Shown here: piece after piece, positions 13,663 through 19,021 of the stretch
How positions within the stretch are numbered: the stretch's first letter is position 1
Layout: each line of letters starts with the position of its first letter
Assembly (NCBI GenBank): GCA_020881915.1
Contig: JAJFPB010000002.1
Coordinates: 5,653,001-5,717,000, forward strand
DNA from: Paramyrothecium sp. XJ0827
Taxonomy: Eukaryota > Ascomycota > Sordariomycetes > Hypocreales > Stachybotryaceae
DNA: 64,000 bases
Direction: 5' to 3'
Position numbers and translations under genes: made by a program
The notes under the pieces: generated by a model
What the model was told of the DNA's origin: nothing
The model's database searches: none
Seen by the model: the letters and a program-made list of their open reading frames with translations, nothing else

Positions 13663-15302
13663 CTAGATACAAAGAGTATTTATTCGGAGTATGACCTTCT
13701 CAATATAGCGTGCAGCGACCACGATGCCATCTGCATCCTGGAACTCGTTCTGGTCTCCAAAGTCCTCGTTGCCAGCATCGAGACACGTCAGGCAAGTTTG
13801 CACAATTTTGGTGTATTTGGTGCCCATTCGTTGCGGTAGATGATTATGTGCCAGTGCGAGCAGATGATCTTTACCCGACGCCCTCAGATACGCCGCGGCT
13901 TGTTTGCTGTCCATATTGGCTGGGAGATAGAGCATTGGCCCTGCTTTGCCTTCCGTGCTACTCTGGTCGTAACGGATTAAACTATCCCATAGGCCGATTT
14001 CAAGGAGACACACTCCCAAACTATACATGTCGTGCTGCATTACGTATTCTTCCTGTGGACTATACCCTTGCCGCGAAGGGTGCCGGTAGAGATTTTTGTC
14101 GAGTGCTTCGTCCCCGATCCGCGTTGTCTGGCCCTGGTCTCGACGAAAGTCTTCGAAACCCACGAGAAAAACTGTCGGCGACGCATACTCATCCGTATCA
14201 TCAAAAGTAATAACAGTCTCGGGCCGTATGTTTTTGTGGACGAAACCAAACGTGTGTACATAACCAACCGATTTGGCTAGTTGCTGGGCAAGTTCCAGAC
14301 GAAAAGTCACTGACACAACGGGCGAACCGTTGAGCATGAGGCCTCGAAGAGTTTGAGGGCCGCAGCGCAGTGTTGGGCATCTGAAGACCAATGTAAACTC
14401 GATCCGCTGCTCTGGCCCAGTACTGTGCGTTTCCTTAACAAAGCCCTTGCATGAGAGTAGACCAAAAGTCTCAGGGTCGTTGTGCTGCAGCCGCCGCGCC
14501 AAGTCGCGAACGTCGGTTTGAGTTGCTAAGAGATTTATCGCCGGTTGCCTTTCAATTCTGTTCAAAATGAAAGTCGAGACTTGACCTGCGGAGTTTGTTC
14601 TAGTTGCCAGAATCGAACGACAAAACGGTATCTGTGTCAACTCCATTTTGCGAATTTGCTCGGCTTCGAGGCTCAAACGTGCTCCAGCCGGGTTTCCCGA
14701 AACCGTTCCCTGGATTCCAGCTCGGATTGGCAAAATGGATGGAATTGCTGCTGCCGTCCTCGACGCATCTGCCATTGCTTTGTCAATGCCAGGATCGGCA
14801 ATTCTCATGAGCAAGAACCAAGACTGGTCCGCGATTCGTTGCCACGTTTCAAAATCCTCTATAGCGTTGTCTAGACTCTCCTTCTTCCAAACAAACTTGA
14901 GCTTGTTGGTTGTAATGCTGGTTCGATGCCCATTCTCATCACTACCATTATTGGATCGCACGAACCTGTCAAGCATAGAGACAACAAGCTCCAGCTTGCT
15001 CAACAAGACGGCTAGAGTACGCTCATAAACATCTCGGTGTTCATCGCCCATTAAATGATGGACTTGCTGGAGTAGTTCGATCCGTGTCTCGAAGTGCACC
15101 CAGCCATTCTCCAACCGAAGTGTGCACTCGGAGAGCGCTGTGTCTGCACCCTTGACCTTGCTGCATAGCTTCTTGAGCTTCCTGCCGTACCTGCGACCTG
15201 TTCAATCAAATGTGAAGAGAGAGATCTCGGTTCAGTTTGCGAAACATACTGGAAGCCTAGATCTATTGCTGGTACGATGGCCAAGGCAAGCTCGATAGAC
15301 AT
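13663..15302 (-). CDS. HeLo-like domain fused to a pseudokinase (MLKL-like architecture)
   Basis: Two exons (15302-15250 and 15190-13663; intron GTATGT..CGCAG) give 526 residues. Splicing gives the N-terminus MSIELALAIVPAIDLGFQYG followed by RKLKKLCSKVKGAD, the hydrophobic first helix of fungal HeLo/prion-inhibition domains. The helical region ends near residue 165 with ADPGIDKAMADASRT. A kinase-fold C-terminal lobe follows: FRLELAQQLAKSVGYVHTFG, then VHKNIRPETVI (residues 336-338 HKN in place of HRD), VGFEDFR (no DFG, about 362) and QHDMYSLGVCLLEIGLW (the alpha-F region). No glycine-rich loop is visible. The loop Asp residues for catalysis and Mg2+ are missing, so it is most likely inactive. 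HeLo domains insert into the plasma membrane and kill the cell when triggered. It is divergent from an active kinase-ankyrin gene. Confidence 0.82.
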
Positions 15303-15821
15303 TTCTTTTTTGACTGGCGTAAAGGTAAGAAATGGTTCGAAAATCAGCAGAGAACAGATGGACTGTCTTGAATATCAAGCTGCCCGCTCCATATTTACCC
15401 CTCTCTCTGGCTATAAATAGGCTCGATTATTGGTATCTATCTGTACAGCCTGAACAATTGAAAAGTGTAATCAAGGAATGGCCTTACAATTGAAGACCCG
15501 GCGGCAAACAGAATTAATTAGTCTTAAATCGTGTTGAATCTTAATTTGTCACACACACTGTCATCTACGCGGACCTTGATTTCACACTGTCCTTGTTAGG
15601 ATGAGCTCAAATGATGGAAGGGAGCCGTGGCTGTATTTAATTGGTTTGAAGCAACGCTGACAGCAAGGACTGTTCCCTAGTCATGTGATACCATACTGCA
15701 AGGCTCAGCTCAGCTCTGGAGCGCCCCTATTGATCCTGATCTCTCACGTCGCACCTTGATGATGCCCCGTCAGCGACAATAGACAGCGCTATCCAACAGG
15801 ACCGCCAAGTGTTGACTTGAA
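15303..15821. promoter_or_regulatory. Shared divergent promoter of the HeLo-pseudokinase and kinase-ankyrin genes
   Basis: 519 bp lie between the two ATGs (15302 leftward, 15822 rightward). A TATA-like element (CTATAAATAG, 15411-15420) lies about 110 bp upstream of the leftward ATG and reads as TATTTATAG on that strand, a plausible distance for the HeLo gene. No equally good element is seen close to the rightward start. One intergenic region serving both genes makes coordinated expression likely (inference). Confidence 0.55.
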
Positions 15822-18800
15822 ATGCCAGTGCCTCACGACGACAGTAGCCTGGAAATTGATGCTTTGCCTGAGTTGGTCCGCGATGCAAGGCTGCAGGCGA
15901 CATTCCGACATGATGGCGTCCAAAGCTACACAATACATTCCCGGCCAGTCCGCCACCGGATGAGGTCTCGAATGGAGGTATGGCAGCGCCAACAGGAACT
16001 GGGACGTGGAGGAAACGGAACTGTTGAGTTGCAGTCGAAAAAAACGGATGACCCCGAGCGTCCGCAGTACCGAGCAGTCAAGAGCATCCGTATTTCGGTA
16101 ATTGATCTGAGGACGAAACAAGACATATATGTGCGTGAATTGGAAGCACTAACCAAATTTTCACAAGAAAAGGTGATTAAAAAAAAGCCTGCATGCTCAG
16201 ATCTAATCACTCACAAAACAACTTGGTAGTACTCAGACTGCTTCGTGAAATTTCATGGTTGGTATGACAGCCCTGGATGGATCCATATCGCCATGGAATA
16301 CTGTGAAATGGGAGATTTGCAGAAATACCTCTCAAACGCAATCAAATGCCCGGGCGGTCGCCTGCCTGAAGATCAAGCCCAAGAAATTGCATTGCAGGTT
16401 CTCGGTGCCATGTCCATGATGCATGAAGAAGGGTTTGCCCATCGGGATCTTAAACCTGCTGTAAGGCTCTGAGCTTATATTTGCTTCGTGATCAACAGGC
16501 TGACACCAAGACCCAGAATATGCTCATAAAGAGTCAACCACCTGATGAATGGTGGATCAAACTCTGCGACCTCGGACTTAGCAAGCGGATTGCGAACGCG
16601 GCGGGCCAGACAAGCGTACACGGGACGCCGAGGTTCATGCCACCTGAGATGCTTGGCTTCATTGGAGATCCAAAGACTGCTGATCCTTACGCTGCAGACA
16701 TGTGGTGCTTTGGGGAAACTGTATTCCAAATGTTGACCGGAAAACCAAGTTTTGATACTCATGGAGAACTTGTTAGGTACTGCCAGGGTCATTCGCCTTA
16801 TCCTTACCACGTACTCAAAGAATCGGATATCGGTGAGGCAGCCATCGATTTCTTACAATCCATCATGGCACCGGATCCTAAGCAAAGACTCAATTGTGGA
16901 GAGGCCTGCAAGCATCAATGGGTTGACGCAGATCAAAACATTGAGTACGGGAATGGCGTCTACAGTTCCCATGTTGACCAAGGCCCCGTGTGGGAGTGGT
17001 CGCCGGAGCAACCTTTACCGCTGAGCGAGGTGACAGGGAGTTGGACAGTGACGAGGCCCAGCATTATACCAATACGTGCCGTTCAGGAGGCATCTGAGGG
17101 ACTGACCGGAGACAAAGCACCAAAAGTAATCGTGCTTGCATCGCAAGGCACAGAGGAGTCGAAGGTAAAGGCTGAGTCGGCATTTTAAGAACGAAACTCA
17201 CCTTCACAGGAGTCATCACTCAAAAACGAGTCTTCTACTCCGAAACTAGAGAACCGACTGAGGCCATTGCACGCAGCCGCAAAAGCTGGTCATCTGAAAA
17301 TAGTTCAACTGCTTACTGAGAAAGGCGCCGAACTAGACAGTGTCGATGATGGTGGACGGACGGCGTTAAATTTGGCTGCAGGCTGGGGCAATCTGGATGT
17401 AGTGAAGCATTTATTGGGCCTAGGCGCTGACCTGACCATTGCTTCCGACCTTGGTCATACTCCCTTAGCATCAGCTGTGATGCACAATCACATAGACCTT
17501 GCCGAGTTGCTGGTTGAAAGTGGCAGTGATCCATTGCTTGTCAGTCAACAGGGCTTTTCTCCAATGCATTACGTTGCGACTCACGGCTACGTTGAGGGTG
17601 CCGAGTTTCTCGCGAAGCATGGTGCTGACATATCAGGACCAACTTCTGCTGAACGGACGCCTGTGAGTCTAGCGTCAGAGAAAGGCAACACGCAAATGGT
17701 TCGCTGGTTGCTGGATAGAGGTGCTGACTTCACCTCCCTGAGCAATACAGGATGGAATCCACTGCACTACGCAGTTCGGGATGGCCACTTCGAGATAATG
17801 CAGTTTCTGATGGAAAATGGGGCCGATTACACAACACCAACCCCATTCGGCCGGACAACTGTAATGTCAGCGTCTTCCAACGGTCATTTGGACATTGTTA
17901 AGCTTCTCGTCGAAAAAGGGGTTGATCCTAGCCCCCAGCAAAAGGACGGATGGACTGCTCTCCATTTCGCTGCAGACAACGGCCATTTTGAGGTGGCAAA
18001 GTATCTTGTCGCATCTGGCGCTCCGATTTCCGCAAGAAATGACTATGGTAGCACGCCATTGCTGATGGCAGCGAAAACTAGCAATCTCGAATTGGCAAAA
18101 CTTTTAATTTCAAAGGGTGCCAGTCCTGCAGACTCTCACTCCCAGGGTTGGATGCCTTTGCATTCTTCGGCAAATGCTGGCCATCTTGAGTTGGTCAAGC
18201 TGTTTTGCAACGGAGGGGCCGATCTAGAAGCTGGAACGAACGAAGGGGACACGGCGCTCTGCCTTGCAGCATCCGGAGGGCATACCGAAGTTGTCGAAGA
18301 ATTAATCGAACGGGGCGCTGATATTCAAGCAAGAAACAAATATGGTATGTCGGTACTCAATCGTGCTGCTGCGCATTCCGAAAAACCCGAGACAGTGCGA
18401 TTCCTTCTTGAGAAGGGTGCTGAAATACATGGAGCTGATATCAAACAATGGACCCCAATAATACGGGCATCTTATTCTGGTTGTCTAGGAATTATCCACT
18501 TACTTCTTGAAAAAGGCGCTCGTATCACAGATAGGAGTGATAATGGCACAACCCCTCTGGACATAGCTTGTCAACATGGGAAGACTGACGTGGCGAAGCT
18601 GCTCCTAGGAAAGGGAGCTGAAATTGAAGCTGTTAGGGATGACGGATGGACCCCACTGCTCTCGTCAGCTCGATATGGGCATGCAGCAACTGCAAGACTT
18701 CTCTTACAATCGGGCGCAAATATTGAAGCCATGGCAGATAAGCAGTGGAGAGCGATACACGTGGCTTCATACTACGGCCAATTGGACGCAGTCAAAGTGA

Positions 18801-19021
18801 TTCTTGAATTTGGTGCCGATTTGACCGCCAAAGCCGAAGGGGGGTGGACCGCGGTCAATTTAGCAGCCGATAATGGCCAGCGGGAGATTGTCGAATTACT
18901 CATTGACCATGGAGCCGACCTAAGTGTCAAAACTACGACTGGCGGGACACCATTGATCTCCGCTGCCAACCAGGGACACTTAGATGTGGTGAAACTGTTG
19001 ATTGAGAATGGGGCAAGCTAA
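15822..19021 (+). CDS. Ser/Thr protein kinase with 18 C-terminal ankyrin repeats
   Basis: Four exons (15822-16172, 16230-16460, 16517-17164, 17210-19021) give 1,013 residues. The kinase motifs are intact: LGRGGNGTV (glycine loop, 60-68), AVK (Lys87), HRDLKPAN (188-195, restored by splicing the GTAAGG..CCCAG intron), DLG (212-214, a common variant of DFG) and GTPRFMPPEM in the activation segment. After a linker (about 330-425) come 18 consecutive ankyrin repeats of about 33 residues (about 428-1013), for example GWTALHFAADNGHFEVAKYL. The gene ends inside the last repeat with no further domain. The kinase-plus-ankyrin order resembles animal RIPK4. The repeats would sense a ligand or partner; the natural substrate may be the divergent HeLo-pseudokinase (inference). 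Confidence 0.92.

What the first reader, a model, noticed from the sequence alone, without database searches (positions are those of the whole stretch)
13663..19021. Divergent HeLo-pseudokinase and kinase-ankyrin genes: a possible fungal necroptosis-like pair
Two head-to-head genes share 519 bp of promoter. One couples a HeLo-like, presumably membrane-killing N-terminal domain to a dead kinase fold. The other couples an intact kinase to 18 ankyrin repeats. In animals, RIPK-type kinases (RIPK4 also has kinase plus ankyrin) act upstream of death signalling, and MLKL is a four-helix killer domain fused to a pseudokinase that is switched on by phosphorylation. HeLo/HELL domains are already considered relatives of the MLKL bundle. 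A sensor-kinase switching on a HeLo-pseudokinase executioner would be a phosphorylation-triggered route, distinct from the amyloid-templated NLR/HET-S route. The pairing and the functional link are inference.
Basis: partly seen in the sequence, partly recalled or inferred. Interest (0 to 1): 0.88.

Follow-up and report, generated by a model that had tools for sequence, protein, structure and literature searches.

The report
Fungal kinase and pseudokinase gene pair
Two back-to-back fungal genes, one for a working protein kinase with a repeat-built tail and one for a helix bundle joined to a dead kinase, stay together in many fungi and look like a phosphorylation-triggered cell-death switch, although killing itself has not been tested.

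Summary
The two genes are real. Gene A (13663-15302, minus, one intron, 526 aa) is a predicted four-helix bundle followed by a pseudokinase. Gene B (15822-19021, plus, four exons, 1013 aa) is an intact Ser/Thr kinase followed by about 18 ankyrin units. Their ATGs are 519 bp apart.

I found 27 linked A/B pairs elsewhere, in 23 named species and two metagenome contigs. In 9 of 9 linked pairs with comparable locus tags the tags differ by one. In this genome all 4 A genes, the window's included, have a kinase match within 9 kb, 3 of them within 1 kb. A lacks the DFG-Asp in 27 of 27 linked proteins; B keeps its catalytic residues.

Three limits: A's HeLo identity rests on predicted fold (0 of 56 members match Pfam HeLo); B is CHK2/RAD53/CaMK/DAPK-like, not RIPK-like; phosphorylation and killing are inference.

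Best reading: an MLKL-like executioner switched by its neighbouring sensor-kinase (0.55). A 2025 review notes fungal HELL-(pseudo)kinase proteins; I saw no report of a partner kinase. New variant of a known kind.

The parts
15250..15302 (-). Gene A exon 1: start codon and the hydrophobic first half of helix 1 (residues 1-18)
   Evidence: gene model; one search shows the same N-terminus in full-length homologues; mean hydropathy of residues 2-18 is 1.4 here and 1.5 over 44 homologues against -0.3 for whole proteins
15191..15249 (-). Gene A intron (59 nt, GTATGT...CAG)
13663..15190 (-). Gene A exon 2: rest of the helix bundle, linker and pseudokinase, to the stop codon
14764..15302 (-). HeLo-like/MLKL-like four-helix bundle, about residues 1-160 (spans the intron)
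   Evidence: AlphaFold2 of homologue P0001 and of window fragment 14776-15189 (pLDDT 76.7); no Pfam match
14716..14745 (-). Linker motif IPSILPIRAG (residues 167-176), shared with many relatives
   Evidence: [ILVMF]RA[GS][LIVMFK] in 50 of 120 A proteins
13666..14676 (-). Pseudokinase domain, about residues 190-526; HKN for HRD (residues 336-338), GFE for DFG
14125..14127 (-). T373 codon in the pseudokinase activation segment: T in 54 and S in 2 of 56 rows
   Evidence: candidate phospho-acceptor (inference)
14074..14076 (-). S390 codon in YRHPSRQG of the activation segment: S in 47 and T in 4 of 56 rows
   Evidence: candidate phospho-acceptor (inference)
15303..15821 (.). 519 bp between the two start codons, presumed shared promoter region
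15822..16172 (+). Gene B exon 1: N-terminal extension and kinase N-lobe
16230..16460 (+). Gene B exon 2: kinase middle, ends in HRDLKPA
16517..17164 (+). Gene B exon 3: kinase C-lobe and linker
15984..16924 (+). Intact Ser/Thr kinase domain, residues 55-330 (spans two introns)
   Evidence: Pfam Pkinase 161.4 bits; catalytic residues kept in linked partners
17024..17053 (+). Linker motif of B kinases, here SEVTGSWTVT
   Evidence: relaxed form in 24 of 27 linked B proteins and in 56 of 98 other B-like kinases; 3.6% per protein in shuffles
17210..19021 (+). Gene B exon 4: ankyrin array (about 18 units, residues 423-1013) and stop codon

Best explanation
The locus is a two-gene cell-death (or cell-damage) switch. 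B is a sensor-kinase: its C-terminal repeat array senses or scaffolds on something non-self or damaged, and the kinase becomes active. B then binds and phosphorylates the pseudokinase of A, most likely in the activation segment (T373/S390). This releases the N-terminal helix bundle of A, which oligomerises and attacks membranes with its hydrophobic first helix. Shown here: the architecture, the dead/alive kinase split, the conserved physical pairing, the parallel descent of the two genes, and B's variable C-terminus. Inferred: sensing, phosphorylation, release and membrane attack.
For: Conserved pairing: 19 same-contig pairs in 18 of the 21 species listed on both sides, and 8 more after a third search; in 9 of 9 linked pairs with comparable locus tags the tags differ by exactly one. 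In this genome, distances from the 4 A genes to the nearest kinase match are 682, 767, 961 and 8708 bp, while 0.57% of the genome lies within 1 kb of a kinase match. As a control, 0 of 22 DUF7580 pseudokinase loci have a listed kinase match within 1 kb and 2 of 22 within 5 kb (the kinase list is a lower bound).

Division of labour: the DFG-Asp is gone in 27 of 27 linked A proteins and the HRD-Asp in 23 of 27. Linked B proteins with the window's keep VAIK Lys in all 26 rows with a residue there, and HRD-Asp and DFG-Asp in all 27. Parallel trees over 31 pairs, r = 0.91, 0 of 5000 permutations as high. A Talaromyces protein (P0205) joins a B-like kinase and an A-like bundle-pseudokinase in one chain.

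Link to true HeLo: in the same genome a gene with a Pfam HeLo domain and a pseudokinase is head-to-head with a gene holding kinase and ankyrin domains (L037). Its pseudokinase is related to A's (hhalign 99.1%). Hydrophobic first helix and conserved Ser/Thr in the activation segment.
Against: No sequence match between A's bundle and Pfam HeLo. Structural matches of the bundle are not above unrelated bundles. B is not RIPK-like. T373 and S390 are 2 of 10 Ser/Thr columns conserved at 85% or more in A, and 8 of these lie outside the activation segment, so they may be structural. B-like kinases also occur without A: a kinase-TPR gene beside a HET-domain gene (L034) and one beside an MFS transporter (L033), so B may have other duties. 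A third HeLo-DUF7580 gene of this genome (L038) has no listed kinase within 200 kb (h6), and of 10 HeLo loci only 2 have a kinase within 5 kb. A shared species tree explains part of the tree correlation; the true assignment ranks 2nd of 96 and own2-4 are unresolved. No data on expression, binding, phosphorylation or toxicity.
Confidence: 0.55

Rival explanations
1. A is a regulator or membrane anchor of B, not an executioner. The pseudokinase switches the kinase on or off allosterically (as STRAD does for LKB1 or JAK JH2 for JH1; recalled), the helix bundle localises or oligomerises the complex, and B signals onward.
For: Kinase-pseudokinase pairs of this type are known (recalled). A's kinase fold is well kept, with an invariant FVHK and a conserved HDIYSLG core, as expected of a binding surface. 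Inheritance as a unit fits any obligate complex. The bundle has no sequence link to HeLo.
Against: The conserved hydrophobic N-terminal helix and the neighbouring HeLo-pseudokinase with kinase-ankyrin pair (L037) point to the death-effector superfamily.
Confidence: 0.22
2. Guard reading: B restrains A. Phosphorylation by B keeps A closed, and loss of B (for example by a parasite or in an incompatible fusion) frees A.
For: Tight linkage is what such a guard needs, since A without B would be lethal. 3 of 4 A genes here have a kinase within 1 kb.
Against: An A gene with its nearest B-like kinase 8.7 kb away exists (L031/L032). No loss data. B's varied tails fit a receptor better than a constitutive guard.
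Confidence: 0.1
3. Amyloid route: B and A are linked by a short templating motif, as in NWD2/HET-S, and the kinase is secondary.
For: Both partners carry a conserved short motif in a linker (A: IPST..IRAGL; B: [AP]SG.W[ST]), and Lophiotrema B carries its motif twice.
Against: The two motifs are not evidently alike. B's motif also occurs in 56 of 98 other B-like kinases. A RHIM-core-like pattern (recalled) is in 2 of 27 linked A, 0 of 27 linked B and neither window protein. The kinase is conserved, which amyloid templating does not need.
Confidence: 0.05
4. The two genes are co-regulated but do not work together, or the module acts in development with no cell death.
For: A divergent promoter alone can keep genes together. 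No functional data exist.
Against: The link is seen in 23 named species and in further pairs of this genome (L029, L030, L037), beyond one promoter's inertia. The alive/dead kinase split recurs in the linked pairs.
Confidence: 0.08

Closest known systems
Animal RIPK3-MLKL necroptosis
   Same: Active kinase partnered with a helix-bundle plus pseudokinase protein that lacks catalytic residues; conserved Ser/Thr in the pseudokinase activation segment
   Different: B is CHK2/CaMK/DAPK-like, not RIPK-like; the genes are adjacent; no sequence link of the bundle to a known family was found; no RHIM-core-like pattern in the window's proteins; phosphorylation untested
Fungal two-gene cell-death clusters: NWD2/HET-S, PNT1/HELLP (passages of PMC7885112, PMC10197012 and PMC12881547 seen)
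   Same: Sensor gene next to an executioner gene with a helical membrane-attacking N-terminus; sensor built of repeats
   Different: A kinase domain takes the place of NACHT/NB-ARC, and a pseudokinase takes the place of the amyloid motif
Fungal gasdermin plus protease-repeat pairs (passages of PMC12881547 seen)
   Same: Enzyme-plus-repeat sensor (TPR, ANK, WD40) encoded next to the pore former it activates
   Different: Kinase in place of protease; phosphorylation would replace cleavage
Fungal HELL proteins with a kinase/pseudokinase domain (one sentence in PMC12881547, seen)
   Same: Probably the same protein kind as A, or its HeLo-DUF7580 cousins
   Different: The passages seen mention no partner kinase gene and no catalytic-residue analysis
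DAPK1 (kinase, ankyrin repeats, death domain; architecture recalled) and RIPK4
   Same: CaMK-type kinase (DAPK among the best solved-structure matches) with ankyrin repeats
   Different: No death domain in B; the fungal kinase is paired with a separate pseudokinase

Membership tests
MLKL / HeLo-superfamily executioner (gene A) | N-terminal four-helix bundle | tested here: met
   Predicted fold only. AlphaFold2: helices 9-30, 35-64, 67-101, 111-138 in homologue P0001 (residues 1-6 below pLDDT 50); four main helices in the window's own fragment
MLKL / HeLo-superfamily executioner (gene A) | Specific structural match to MLKL/HeLo/RPW8 bundles above unrelated bundles | tested here: inconclusive
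Pfam HeLo PF14479 | Sequence-profile match | tested here: not met
   0 of 56 members at E <= 0.01; not among the 25 of 50 families shown for 85 members at E <= 10, where unshown families match one member each at most; hhalign 0.1% against 8 own-genome HeLo domains
MLKL | C-terminal pseudokinase lacking catalytic residues | tested here: met
MLKL | Activated by phosphorylation of the pseudokinase by a partner kinase | not testable with these tools
   Only conserved Ser/Thr (T373, S390) and a linked kinase with intact catalytic residues were found
MLKL / HeLo-superfamily executioner (gene A) | Membrane permeabilisation and cell death | not testable with these tools
   No assay; hydrophobic first helix only
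HeLo-DUF7580 pseudokinase proteins (gene A, C-terminal half) | Homologous pseudokinase domain | tested here: met
   hhalign 99.3% (L035) and 99.1% (L037), both genes with Pfam HeLo; 99.4% for L036, without HeLo (Pfam). Direct Pfam DUF7580 match in only 1 of 56 members
RIPK (gene B) | Kinase of the RIPK/TKL type | tested here: not met
   The best 60 of 742 solved-structure sequence matches are CHK2, RAD53, CaMK, CDPK, DAPK, STK17, ULK1 and PKC iota; none named RIPK among those 60, the other 682 not shown
RIPK1/RIPK3 (gene B) | RHIM motif | tested here: not met
   Simple core pattern [VI]Q[VIL]G (recalled) absent from window B and from 27 of 27 linked B proteins; a degenerate motif is not excluded
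Kinase-ankyrin proteins (RIPK4/DAPK-like architecture, gene B) | Intact kinase followed by an ankyrin array | tested here: met
Fungal NLR/effector two-gene cluster | NACHT or NB-ARC domain in the sensor | tested here: not met
   Pfam finds only kinase and ankyrin families in B

The most novel reading that the evidence does not exclude
Filamentous ascomycetes carry a third class of immune-type death module beside NLR/amyloid/HeLo and protease/gasdermin. In it a kinase with interchangeable tails (ankyrin, BAG, acyl-CoA-binding, DUF7082, perhaps TPR and WD40) phosphorylates its genetic neighbour, a helix-bundle pseudokinase, to kill the cell: the arrangement of RIPK3-MLKL, assembled from a CHK2/CaMK-type kinase.
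Probability: 0.45. Interest if true: 0.92.

Novelty: new variant of a known kind. Interest (0 to 1): 0.8.

Why it matters
Fungal executioners related to MLKL are known, but the signalling step described for them in the papers I saw is amyloid templating from an NLR. How far necroptosis and fungal necroptosis-like death are conserved is named as future work in PMC12881547 (section 18 read). A conserved linked pair of kinase and pseudokinase-bundle would make that question directly testable in a genetic model: does a kinase trigger a fungal MLKL-like protein by phosphorylation? It also suggests a class of repeat-built fungal receptors, without a nucleotide-binding domain, that NLR surveys would miss.

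Tried and rejected
RIPK relationship of B: rejected.

A as a plain Pfam HeLo protein: rejected at sequence level; only the fold argument and the L037 neighbour remain. The HeLo set was 8 of the 14 matches (about 10 loci).

A and B motif as one homotypic motif: the window's two linkers look alike by eye (PSILPIRAG in A, PSIIPIRAV in B), but the family-wide motifs differ, so I dropped it.

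B's linker motif as a pairing-specific docking site: not supported. The relaxed form occurs in 24 of 27 linked B proteins but also in 56 of 98 other B-like kinases. A stricter form gave 19 of 27 and 22 of 98.

Tree control: the six best of 96 partner assignments all keep the window pair, both Rosellinia pairs and both Fusarium floridanum pairs. The true assignment is 2nd, because own2-4 branches are too deep.

Pairs that did not link: Neoarthrinium moseri, Ustulina deusta and Rhypophila decipiens have A and B listed on different contigs; different strains may stand behind the clusters, not checked. Of the 60 named A proteins (one search shows 120 of 651 hits), 25 have a linked B in what I could see. 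The B lists show only 120 of 2015 and 120 of 540 hits, so the other 35 say little either way. One B row without contig data (P0135) was left out.

Limits of the linkage test: same contig was read from equal contig lengths in one species, not from maps. On chromosome-sized contigs this is weak (11 of the 19 pairs are on contigs under 600 kb). Only the locus-tag cases and this genome show adjacency, and only this genome shows orientation. The kinase list scored 123 of 263 candidates and missed the L037 kinase, so the genome fraction and the control rest on an incomplete list.

First try of the HeLo comparison used unturned minus-strand loci; redone. Alignments A2 and A3 misplaced the fragment's tail; A4 was used. 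Structure searches with the whole homologue model were filled by kinases.

Full report
WHAT IS THERE. Gene A runs on the minus strand: exon 1 15302-15250, a 59-nt GT-AG intron, exon 2 15190-13663, 526 aa. Gene B runs on the plus strand in four exons, 15822-16172, 16230-16460, 16517-17164 and 17210-19021, 1013 aa. The gap between start codons is 519 bp. A's first exon supplies the N-terminus found in many full-length homologues, so the model is likely right in its most delicate place. Pfam gives B a protein kinase domain (161.4 bits, residues 55-330) and ankyrin repeats, and gives A nothing at E <= 0.001. Counting 33-residue units finds 16 clear ankyrin repeats; one degenerate and one truncated unit make 18.

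THE PAIRING IS CONSERVED. The protein searches give, for many hits, the species, a contig length and a locus tag. Of 60 named A proteins and 81 named fungal B proteins, 21 species occur on both sides; 18 of these have an A and a B on a contig of the same length, 19 pairs in all. In 6 of 6 such pairs with comparable tags the tags differ by one (Ilyonectria robusta AUP68_11582/11581, Fusarium lateritium, F. floridanum, Pestalotiopsis fici, Xylaria multiplex, X. grammica). A third search (tabulated) adds 8 pairs, three of them with adjacent tags (F. decemcellulare, a second F. floridanum pair, Diaporthe australafricana) and two on metagenome contigs of only 7.6 and 9.3 kb. That makes 27 linked pairs, 23 named species, 9 of 9 adjacent where linked tags are comparable. 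Three species had A and B listed on different contigs, and 35 of 60 named A proteins have no linked B in the lists, which show only 120 of 2015 and of 540 B hits.

IN THIS GENOME. Besides the window there are three more full-length A paralogues, at 36-38% identity (one match, on C9, reads through two stops, probably an intron). Each lies near a B-like kinase: L029 on C8 and L030 on C9 head-to-head with a kinase followed by ankyrin exons (Pfam), and C7 with 8.7 kb and other open frames between (L031/L032). Distances to the nearest kinase match are 682, 767, 961 and 8708 bp, while 0.57% of the genome lies within 1 kb of a kinase match. As a control, of 22 loci of the broader pseudokinase family DUF7580 (exon pieces merged) none has a listed kinase within 1 kb and 2 have one within 5 kb (the list is incomplete). 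Those two are instructive, because both proteins carry a Pfam HeLo domain. In L037 a HeLo-pseudokinase gene (HeLo 46 bits) is head-to-head with a gene holding kinase and ankyrin domains. In L035 a HeLo-pseudokinase gene (HeLo 113 bits) has a kinase gene about 3 kb away in the same orientation. hhalign relates their pseudokinases to A's at 99%. Against this, a third HeLo-DUF7580 gene (L038) has no listed kinase within 200 kb, and 2 of 10 HeLo loci in all have one within 5 kb. A pseudokinase gene without HeLo lies 3 kb from a kinase-ankyrin gene in L036.

PARALLEL DESCENT. Trees of 31 A and B partners give distance matrices that correlate at r = 0.91; none of 5000 label permutations comes near (maximum 0.53). 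Species history explains part of this. The better test is within genomes: of 96 ways of re-assigning partners within this genome, Rosellinia and F. floridanum, the true one ranks 2nd, and the top six all keep the window pair, both Rosellinia pairs and both Fusarium pairs; only own2-4 are unresolved. A Talaromyces pinophilus protein of 902 aa holds a B-like kinase (37% identity) and an A-like bundle-pseudokinase (35%) in one chain. The source names it 'HET-s/LopB domain protein'. It may be two genes merged in annotation, which would still mean neighbours.

THE SENSOR END. The C-terminal part of linked B proteins differs: ankyrin here and in L029 and L030, BAG in Pestalotiopsis fici and Xylaria scruposa, acyl-CoA-binding protein in Apodospora, DUF7082 in Ilyonectria, and no Pfam domain beyond the kinase in 6 of the 10 scanned. 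Kinases close in sequence to B but not seen linked to A carry TPR, WD40 or other domains (precomputed columns). One in this genome, kinase plus TPR, is head-to-head with a HET-domain gene (L034). Conserved core plus exchangeable tail is what receptors show. Sensing itself is inference.

MECHANISM. The best reading is that B, once triggered, phosphorylates A's pseudokinase and frees the bundle. The activation segment holds a Thr (T373: T 54, S 2 of 56) and a Ser (S390: S 47, T 4 of 56) that are nearly invariant; eight other Ser/Thr columns of A are as well conserved, so these two are candidates only. Rivals are a regulatory complex without killing, a guard in which B restrains A, an amyloid link, and mere co-regulation.

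WHAT IS KNOWN. [quoted passage not shown] I saw no mention of a partner kinase gene in the passages shown of PMC12881547, PMC10197012, PMC9815663, PMC7885112, PMC5485727, PMC4986451, PMC12258605, PMC4835503, PMC11476962 and PMC9950082. Eight library searches listed no paper whose title or abstract start names such a pair; each showed at most 20 rows. Most subscription papers and all preprints are outside that library. B's kinase is nearest CHK2, RAD53, CaMK1 and DAPK among solved structures, not RIPK, so this is a likeness of arrangement rather than a fungal RIPK.

VERDICT. The pairing is close to certain. The active/dead kinase split is shown at sequence level. The HeLo-like fold is likely. 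The death function is plausible and untested. Interest 0.8.

Noticed in passing
L034:3151-9327 (G000 C14): A B-like kinase-TPR gene lies head-to-head with a gene for a HET (heterokaryon incompatibility) domain protein: a possible second kind of effector paired with this kinase family.
   Followed up: partly
L037:1-5149 (G000 C15): A Pfam-HeLo plus pseudokinase gene is head-to-head with kinase and ankyrin exons: a more distant version of the module with a recognisable HeLo domain.
   Followed up: yes
L036:1108-9172 (G000 C3): Kinase and ankyrin frames are followed about 3 kb downstream, same strand, by a pseudokinase gene without HeLo.
   Followed up: partly
window:17024-17053: B kinases share a short linker motif [AP]SG.W[ST] of unknown role just after the kinase domain; one relative carries it twice.
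   Followed up: partly
window:14716-14745: Many A proteins share a linker motif around IPST..IRAGL between bundle and pseudokinase; a strict pattern finds it in 50 of 120.
   Followed up: partly
window:20369-21231: Pieces of a glycosyl hydrolase family 28 gene on the minus strand, beside the pair.
   Followed up: no
window:12509-13375: A methyltransferase-like frame ends about 290 bp from the end of gene A.
   Followed up: no
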